From Actinomycetes bacterium (GTDB taxonomy: Bacteria; Actinomycetota; Thermoleophilia; Gaiellales; Gaiellaceae): a stretch of DNA of 37,769 nt. The stretch covers positions 1-37,769 of the forward strand of contig JAHEXT010000003.1 of NCBI GenBank assembly GCA_023251945.1. Reading direction: 5' to 3'. A model generated the notes under the pieces. It was not told the DNA's origin, ran no database searches, and saw only the letters and a program-made list of their open reading frames with translations. The position numbers were made by a program, and so were the translations under genes. Positions 13,706 to 37,316 of this stretch are shown here, one piece after another; positions within the stretch are counted from its first letter, which is position 1; the number at the start of each line of letters is the position of its first letter.

Positions 13706-14097
13706 TGGCGACGGACGTCCAGAAGGTGCTCGACACGCTCGGCAAGATGACGGTGCTCGAGCTTGTCGAGCTGAAGAAGTCGATCGAGGACGAGTGGGGC
13801 GTCTCCGCCGCCGCTCCGGTCGCGGTCGCCGCCCCCGGTGCGGCTCTCGCGGCCGCCGGTGAGGGTGCCGCCGAAGCGGAGGAGAAGGACTCCTTCGACG
13901 TCGTGCTCACCGCCGTCGGGGACAAGAAGATCCAGGTCATCAAGGTCGTCCGGGCGGTGACGGGCCTCGGTCTCAAGGAGGCGAAGGACCTCGTCGACGG
14001 CGCTCCCGGTGCCGTCAAGGAGGGCGCCGCGAAGGAGGAGGCCGAGTCCGTCAAAGCCCAGCTCGAAGAGGCGGGCGCCAGCGTCGAGTTGAAGTAA
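13705..14097 (+). CDS. rplL: 50S ribosomal protein L7/L12
   Basis: [33 protein letters not shown]...[43 protein letters not shown]. Confidence 0.98.
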
Positions 14098-14100
14098 CCC

Positions 14101-14157
14101 GGGGTCAGGTCTCGTTTGTTGCACGTAGGTCGTGTGCAACAAACGAGACCTGACCCC
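14101..14157. repeat. family-3 palindrome, copy 1 (REP/RAYT-type inverted repeat)
   Basis: GGGGTCAGGTCTCGTTTGTTGCAC / GTGCAACAAACGAGACCTGACCCC, 24-bp perfect arms, 9-nt spacer GTAGGTCGT. Confidence 0.95.
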
Positions 14158-14303
14158 AGCTTGCCTCGTGCGCTATCCTTCTTGGACGCATTCCATCCGC
14201 TCCGACGGCGGTTGCGGTGGGTTGTGCTCGTGCGCTATCCTTCGGGGTTCCGCCGAGGCTTCGCCCGTCCAACTCTGCATGCATTTAAGGGAGGCTGTCA
14301 CAT

Positions 14304-22536: not shown

Positions 22537-22593
22537 GGGGTCAGGTCTCGTTTGTTGCACGGCCAGGCCGTGCAACAAACGAGACCTGACCCC
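22537..22593. repeat. family-3 palindrome, copy 2
   Basis: Same 24-nt arms as 14101-14157 with a different 9-nt spacer GGCCAGGCC; starts 6 nt after the rpoC stop. Confidence 0.95.
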
Positions 22594-35655: not shown

Positions 35656-36024
35656 GTGATCCAGCAGGAATCCCGTCTCCGGGTTGCGGACAACACGGGA
35701 GCGCGCGAGCTCCTGTGCATCCGCGTGCTCGGCGGTTCGCACCGCCGCTACGCGCGGGTCGGGGACGTGATCGTTGCTACCGTGAAGTCCGCCACGCCTC
35801 AGGGCGCGGTGAAGAAGGGCGAGGTCGTGCGGGCGGTCGTCGTTCGCACGAAGAAGCCCTACAGTCGCGACGACGGCACGCTCATCGGCTTCGACGAGAA
35901 CGCCGCCGTCCTGATCGACAACCAATCGAACCCGCGCGGGACGCGCATCTTCGGACCCGTCGCGCGCGAGCTCCGCGAGAAGAACTTCATGAAGATCGTC
36001 AGCCTTGCCCCGGAGGTCCTCTAA
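35656..36024 (+). CDS. rplN: 50S ribosomal protein L14
   Basis: [48 protein letters not shown]. Confidence 0.97.
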
Positions 36025-36193
36025 GTGCCCCCTCACGCAATGTCCTCCCAGTCCCTGGCGGCTGCAAAGCTGCGCCATGCTGCGTCCTCGGTCGCGCCCA
36101 TATCTCGACCCGATATGGGCGCTCCCTGCGTCCTTGCCTGGCTTGCTTTTCGCTCGCCAGGAACGGGGCAACATCACCTGAGGGGACACTGAA
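36024..36193 (+). repeat. family-2 intergenic structured repeat, copy C (rplN stop to rplX start)
   Basis: Shares CTGCGCCAyGCTGC...GTCCTCGGTCGCrCCC...GCGCTCCCTGCrTCCTTGC with 36566-36728; terminal arms pair with each other. Confidence 0.88.
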
Positions 36194-36565
36194 GTGCCAG
36201 TGAAGATGAAGGTCAAGAAGGGCGACCTCGTCCAGATCCTCACCGGGAAGGACCGCGGCAAGCAGGGCCGCGTCCTCGAGGCGCGTCCGGCCGAGCGCAG
36301 GGTCATCGTCGAGAACCTCAACGTCGCCAAGCGGCATACGCGGCCAAAGCCGATCAAGGACTCGTCCCGCATGGGCGGGACTCAGATCGTGCCCGGCGGG
36401 ATCGTCGAGAAGGCGGCGCCGATCCCGGTGTCGAACGTCATGGTCGTCTGTCCCGTTTGCTCGACGCCGACCCGGGTCGGGATCGTGGAGAAGGAGATCA
36501 AGGGCGAGACGATGCGCGTTCGCGTGTGCAAGCGCGAGGGCTGCGGCCAGGACATCGACCGGTGA
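36194..36565 (+). CDS. rplX: 50S ribosomal protein L24 (zinc-binding C+ form)
   Basis: [47 protein letters not shown] ... CPVCS...CKREGCG. Confidence 0.96.
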
Positions 36566-36728
36566 TTTCGGTGGCCTCCGTCGCACCTCGCACCCTGCGC
36601 CACGCTGCAACGCATCGCATCGCTGCGTCCTCGGTCGCACCCGTACCTTCCAGGTACGAGCGCTCCCTGCATCCTTGCGCTGCTCGCGTTTCGCGGGCGC
36701 ACGGCGCGATCTGCTCCGGAGGACACCG
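36566..36728 (+). repeat. family-2 intergenic structured repeat, copy D (rplX stop to rplE start)
   Basis: Homologous core to copy C, same ordering of hairpins, terminal arms CGGTGgCCTCCG / CGGAGGaCACCG. Confidence 0.88.
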
Positions 36729-37316
36729 GTGAGCACCGCTGCGCCGACACTCGAGACGTACGTCCCGCGCCTCAAGCAGCGCTACGACACGGAGATCCGC
36801 GCGCAGCTCAAGGAGGAGCTCGAGCTCCCCTCGGTCATGCAGGTCCCCCGCGTGACGAAGGTGACGCTGAACATGGGCGTGGGGGAGGCGAAGACCGACG
36901 CGAAGGCGCTCGATGCCGCGATCGACGAGCTCACCGTGATCTCCGGCCAGCGGGCGCAGGTCCGCCGGGCGAAGAAGTCGATCGCGAGCTTCAAGCTCCG
37001 CGAAGGGATGCCGGTCGGCGCCCGCGTCACGCTCCGGGGTGCGCGCATGTACGAGTTCCTCGATCGCCTCGCGTCGATCGCGCTTCCCCGGATTCGCGAC
37101 TTCCGTGGTCTCGATCCGGGCGCGTTCGACGGGCGCGGCAACTACTCGATCGGGATCAGGGAGCAGATCATCTTTCCCGAGGTCGACTACGACAAAGTTC
37201 CGTCCATCCGCGGCCTCGACGTCGCAATCACCACCTCCGCGCAGTCGGACGAGCACGGGCACGCGCTCCTCGCCGCGCTCGGCCTGCCGTTCGCGGGAGA
37301 GAGAAGGGATCAGTAA
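36729..37316 (+). CDS. rplE: 50S ribosomal protein L5
   Basis: GTG start; [40 protein letters not shown]...[21 protein letters not shown]. Confidence 0.97.

What the first reader, a model, noticed from the sequence alone, without database searches (positions are those of the whole stretch)
36566..36728. Family-2 second copy before rplE keeps the fold while changing the sequence, including the SD/anti-SD arms
Copy D shares the core with copy C but its helices have different sequences: terminal arms CGGTGgCCTCCG (36569-36580)/CGGAGGaCACCG (36717-36728) versus AGTGcCCCCTCA/TGAGGGGaCACT, with a single opposed mismatch in a similar position; central hairpin CGTACC-TTCCA-GGTACG versus CATATC-TCGACCC-GATATG; 3' hairpin TGCGC...GCGCA versus CCTGGC...GCCAGG. 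In D the 3' terminal arm contains GGAGGA, the rplE SD, 5 nt before GTG 36729. Conserved architecture with replaced paired bases argues for an RNA-level role. Copies in two successive gaps (rplN-rplX, rplX-rplE) suggest tandem use.
Basis: seen in the sequence. Interest (0 to 1): 0.88.

Follow-up and report, generated by a model that had tools for sequence, protein, structure and literature searches.

The report
Mobile RNA hairpin between ribosomal genes
The feature is one copy of an apparently undescribed family of small (about 165-letter) mobile palindromic repeats, spread through Thermoleophilia and some other actinobacteria, that lands next to stop codons and, when it lands between two touching genes, brings the second gene a ribosome-binding site folded into its own hairpin.

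Summary
C and D fold as long imperfect hairpins (z about -5.3 each) and their terminal arms differ but still pair. Across 31 copies there are 368 doubly compensated cells against 144±10 in shuffles. The interpretation changes in two ways. (1) It is not a resident rplE leader: relatives lack it in both gaps, while other species carry copies in other gaps. It is a dispersed, insertable repeat, with 1 to more than 150 copies per genome, found across Thermoleophilia and in one family of another class. (2) The fold is one extended hairpin; the separate 3' hairpin is not conserved. Most copies touch stop codons (155 of 242 genes reading into an element stop within -5..+4 nt of its edge); about a quarter abut a start. 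Where a copy fills a stop-start junction it is almost always sense (39 to 6), and its 3' arm usually has an SD-like motif (29/39 versus 40/196 elsewhere) paired to an anti-SD. Best reading: an ERIC/Correia-like non-autonomous element that can rebuild the stop, supply a masked SD and probably keep the separated genes translationally coupled. Mobility is shown by comparison of genomes; coupling is inferred; the transposase is unknown.

The parts
36569..36728 (+). Copy D of the repeat, arm to arm, between rplX stop and rplE start
   Evidence: covariance-model match 36570-36727, 109.7 bits; fold z -5.27
36569..36580 (+). D 5' terminal arm (contains CCTCC, anti-SD)
   Evidence: sequence; pairs with 36717-36728 in the predicted fold
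36717..36728 (+). D 3' terminal arm containing GGAGG (36718-36722), the SD of rplE
   Evidence: sequence; SD unpaired probability 0.01
36622..36638 (+). D conserved core, left part GCTGCGTCCTCGGTCGC
   Evidence: near invariant across copies
36642..36658 (+). D apical hairpin CGTACC-TTCCA-GGTACG
   Evidence: covarying stem (helix 4)
36660..36678 (+). D conserved core, right part GCGCTCCCTGCATCCTTGC
   Evidence: near invariant across copies
36024..36190 (+). Copy C of the repeat, between rplN stop and rplX start
   Evidence: covariance-model match, 152.8 bits; fold z -5.25
36563..36565 (+). rplX stop codon TGA, 3 nt before the D 5' arm
   Evidence: ORF 36194-36565
36729..36731 (+). rplE start codon GTG directly after the D 3' arm
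   Evidence: rplE conserved in 35 of 41 genomes
36559..36565 (+). CCGGTGA, left member of a 7-nt direct repeat (right member 36726-36732); possible target duplication
   Evidence: sequence; not a general rule over 243 copies
36023..36029 (+). AAGTGCC, left member of a 7-nt direct repeat around C (right member 36192-36198)
   Evidence: sequence

Best explanation
D is one copy of a family of non-autonomous mobile palindromic elements about 165 nt long (an ERIC/Correia-like MITE). Shown by comparing genomes: copies are present or absent at orthologous junctions of related species, and many ends overlap the upstream stop codon. Shown statistically: the arms change together, copies that fill a stop-start junction are almost all sense, and their 3' arms are rich in SD-like motifs. 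Inferred: in such places the left end can complete a stop codon and the right end gives the downstream gene an SD; the SD is held in the terminal stem, and a ribosome terminating at the adjacent stop covers the 5' arm, exposes the SD and keeps the two genes translationally coupled. Also inferred: movement is by a transposase acting in trans that I did not identify.
For: Both gaps lack the element in relatives; copies at rplE-rpsN, rplW-rplB and rpsQ-rplN in other species where this genome has none. Dispersed: 22-49 copies in several genomes, 154 or more in one. Covariation. Of 242 genes reading into an element 155 stop within -5..+4 nt of its edge; 5 of 259 copies lie inside a called gene. TA exactly at the left end in 95, the right end in 106 and both in 55 of 247 copies. 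Orientation 39:6 in tight junctions, p 5e-7; SD-like 4-mer in 29/39 against 40/196, p about 1e-10. SD unpaired probability 0.01 in D, 0.47 when 12 nt past the stop are covered.
Against: No transposase with matching ends found. Ends vary while the core is constant, the reverse of ordinary MITEs. Exact TA at both ends in only 22% of copies. Arms are near mirror images in SD content, so SD supply does not explain the sense bias. The ribosome model opens the SD only partly (median 0.30). Some insertions are shared by related species, so function for the host is not excluded.
Confidence: 0.72

Rival explanations
1. A resident cis-regulatory RNA of ribosomal-protein operons (leader or autoregulatory element) that occurs in several places.
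For: Many tight sense copies precede ribosomal-protein genes, also in another class; SD masked in the fold; a few sites shared by congeners (rplW-rplB in G003 and G004).
Against: Position not conserved; many copies beside unrelated genes, antisense, or between convergent genes; no Rfam match. Part of the sample was fetched through D or rplE, which favours ribosomal operons.
Confidence: 0.08
2. A mobile element recognised by its hairpin structure and core (as integron attC sites or IS200/IS605 ends are) rather than by fixed terminal repeats.
For: Arms covary freely while the core is near invariant; several unlike terminal sequences share one core.
Against: No recombinase or HUH enzyme tied to it, none searched for; TA at many ends and near-symmetric use of both ends at stop codons suit a TA-targeting transposase.
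Confidence: 0.15
3. Transcription terminators or generic stem-loops with no common ancestry.
For: Strong hairpins next to stop codons.
Against: Shared near-invariant core across genera and classes; no run of T after the stem in C or D; copies lie inside operons of essential genes.
Confidence: 0.02

Closest known systems
ERIC/IRU/RU-1 repeats of enterobacteria (reviewed in PMC2229807)
   Same: Small (127 bp) dispersed intergenic palindrome, TA at the ends, long RNA stem-loop, found inside transcripts, orientation-dependent effect on mRNA reported
   Different: Unrelated host phylum, about 165 nt; core constant but ends variable and covarying; end overlaps stop codons, arm carries the SD. No sequence comparison with ERIC was run
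Correia/NEMIS (Neisseria) and RUP (pneumococcus)
   Same: MITE size, terminal inverted repeats, TA at the ends, RNA hairpin
   Different: RUP has a matching IS630 partner in the literature; here none was found
BOX elements of Streptococcus pneumoniae (PMC3049150)
   Same: Dispersed structured repeats co-transcribed with genes
   Different: BOX is modular (A, B, C); this family is one hairpin with a single core
Ribosomal-protein leader RNAs
   Same: Structured RNA with a masked SD ahead of ribosomal-protein genes
   Different: Position not conserved, copies beside unrelated genes, no Rfam match

Membership tests
ERIC/Correia/RUP-type MITE | Small size, about 100-200 bp, many dispersed copies | tested here: met
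   about 165 nt; 22-49 copies in several genomes, 154 or more in one
ERIC/Correia/RUP-type MITE | Terminal inverted repeats | tested here: met
   pairing arms at nearly every copy
ERIC/Correia/RUP-type MITE | TA at termini and target duplication | tested here: inconclusive
   TA exactly at one or both ends in 146 of 247 copies, both ends in 55; length of the duplication unresolved
ERIC/Correia/RUP-type MITE | Presence/absence at orthologous sites | tested here: met
   filled and empty junctions
ERIC/Correia/RUP-type MITE | Ends shared with an autonomous IS | tested here: inconclusive
   five IS630-type loci in seven genomes, none with matching ends of its own; other IS families not examined
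ERIC/Correia/RUP-type MITE | Transcript forms a long stem-loop | tested here: met
   (prediction and covariation; no RNA data)
Ribosomal-protein leader RNA | Conserved position ahead of orthologous genes | tested here: not met
   relatives lack the element in both gaps
Ribosomal-protein leader RNA | Match to a known RNA family | tested here: not met
   no Rfam match at E up to 1
Hairpin-recognised elements (attC, IS200/IS605) | Cognate recombinase or HUH transposase | not tested
   no search for these enzymes was made

The most novel reading that the evidence does not exclude
A class of operon-compatible mobile RNA modules: elements recognised by fold and core rather than by fixed ends, which enter stop-start junctions in sense, rebuild the stop, supply a self-masked SD and turn touching genes into a ribosome-gated, translationally coupled pair.
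Probability: 0.22. Interest if true: 0.85.

Novelty: new variant of a known kind. Interest (0 to 1): 0.62.

Why it matters
Palindromic repeats of this kind are well known in enterobacteria, Neisseria and pneumococcus; I found no description in Thermoleophilia in the papers searched. This family shows how a mobile element can enter tightly packed, essential operons without breaking either gene. Its arms are a natural experiment in RNA pairing, and its sense bias makes the question whether such repeats act through RNA directly testable.

Tried and rejected
Rfam at gathering threshold and at E up to 1: nothing for the element. The separate 3' hairpin: not conserved. A long (5-10 nt) target duplication as a general rule: 18 copies share 6 nt or more between the 5' end region and the downstream flank against 6.6 expected, but there is no common register over 243 copies, so this is left open. 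IS630 (DDE_3) as autonomous partner: five loci in two of seven genomes, none with ends of its own matching the element; the IS630 in L376 only abuts element copies. Paper searches for repeats in Thermoleophilia, Gaiella, Solirubrobacter: nothing relevant. A protein-family search on untranslated flanks failed on stop codons.

Full report
What was checked. The arms, apical hairpin, SD and coordinates given for copy D are in the sequence as stated. D and C align through a common core and each folds better than all shuffles, z -5.27 and -5.25. The predicted fold is one long imperfect hairpin closed by the terminal arms. The bases assigned to a separate 3' hairpin pair instead with the 5' half, and that local hairpin is not kept across copies.

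A family. D finds 10 places in its own genome and matches in 25 of 41 genomes. An alignment of 31 copies, made by sequence alone, gives 75.9% standard pairs against 60.0±0.6 in shuffles, 368 doubly changed cells against 143.7±9.6, and a covariation score of 0.361 against 0.136; sliding the partners lowers the score to 0.134 or less. Shuffles do not control for relatedness and the structure was derived from these same sequences, so these figures flatter it somewhat, but the margin is large. A covariance model finds 13 matches in the 1.28-Mb partial genome of the window, including one very weak match and one reverse-strand reading of a copy already counted. It finds 22 to 49 in four genomes of the family, 28 in one of the order, and at least 154 in one 4.6-Mb Thermoleophilia genome. 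A pattern scan of public genomes returned 117 stretches before its limit; the records listed are titled Actinobacteria/Actinomycetota, Thermoleophilia, Gaiellasilicea or Solirubrobacterales. In a sample of the class 25 of 61 genomes match. In a sample of the phylum 12 of 150 match, seven of them in one family outside the class. There, two copies lie directly before genes whose first codons read as rpsC and rpsD. One class-level match (G120) has no recognisable core and is probably false.

It moves. In relatives the rplX-rplE junction has a gap of 0 to 15 nt or an overlap, and the rplN-rplX junction at most about 23 nt apart from unrelated inserts of 71 and 110 nt in two genomes. Other species carry copies at rplE-rpsN (G005, G008, G011), rplW-rplB (G003, G004) and rpsQ-rplN (G011, G019), where this genome has none. 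This filled/empty pattern is the main reason to call it a mobile element rather than a resident regulator. A few sites are shared by congeners, so some insertions persist.

Where it sits. Genes around 259 unique copies were called with a simple codon-usage method of my own; starts are approximate. Five copies lie within a called gene. Of 242 genes reading into an element, 155 stop within -5..+4 nt of its edge. As a rough yardstick, 24% of non-coding TA dinucleotides in the same DNA lie in stop codons. A typical junction reads T|AGTG...CACT|A|ATG: the element's AG completes a TAG stop and the start codon follows one base after the 3' end. Of 228 outgoing ends 65 abut a start codon, so placement at gene starts is a minority pattern.

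Orientation and SD. Between co-directional genes copies are sense 124 times and antisense 50 times (p 1.9e-8). Touching both stop and start: 39 to 6 (p 5e-7). Touching neither: 26 to 17, not significant. The counts include some orthologous sites, and part of the sample was fetched with D or with rplE. In tight sense copies 29 of 39 have an SD-like 4-mer in the 3' arm against 40 of 196 other copies (p about 1e-10); the 5' arms carry the complementary motif equally often. Subfamily history could contribute, because some subfamilies have SD-like arms throughout. The calculated unpaired probability of the SD is 0.01 in D and 0.00 in C; it rises to 0.47 and 0.32 if 12 nt past the stop are blocked, as by a ribosome.

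Mechanism. Shown: presence/absence, compensated arms, stop overlap, sense bias, SD content. Inferred: that a terminating ribosome opens the 5' arm and exposes the SD. Since both ends carry SD-like motifs alike, SD supply does not explain the sense bias; something in the asymmetric interior must matter in the transcript, for example processing, termination or a bound factor, and I could not identify it. An orientation-dependent effect on mRNA is reported for ERIC (PMC2229807), which makes this plausible by analogy only.

What remains odd. Ends vary and the core is constant, the reverse of ordinary MITEs: unlike terminal sequences (TAGTGCYCC, TAAGAACTCG, TAGGAGGGCTTG, TAGCAGGCTGTTGAAG) surround one core. 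No transposase could be tied to it. C, D and a few other sites show direct repeats of 5-7 nt or more that span the start of the downstream gene; there is no settled explanation.

Noticed in passing
window 14091-14167 and 22537-22593: Two copies of a near-perfect palindrome GGGGTCAGGTCTCGTTTGTTGCAC / reverse complement (28-nt perfect arms, 1-nt loop, at 22537-22593), a second and different repeat family.
   Followed up: no
L376 1358-2551 (G041:C1, about 3676000-3677200): An IS630-type element with a frameshifted transposase and ends TAGTGTCCTGAG lies directly between an intact copy of the repeat and a truncated one, joined through TA dinucleotides.
   Followed up: partly
L280, L283, L275 (G041): Head-to-tail tandem copies of the repeat a few bases apart, some nearly identical, suggesting local duplication.
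   Followed up: no
L388, L392, L393: A longer subfamily (about 180 nt, ends AGAATCTATCTCAAAAGGC, longer apical stem) in another family of the class, 31 matches in one genome.
   Followed up: no
window 36023-36029/36192-36198 and 36559-36565/36726-36732; L119, L069: Direct repeats of about 7 nt flank C and D, and TGATCC flanks the rpsQ-rplN copies of two genera; they span the start of the downstream gene and run into the element's 5' arm.
   Followed up: partly
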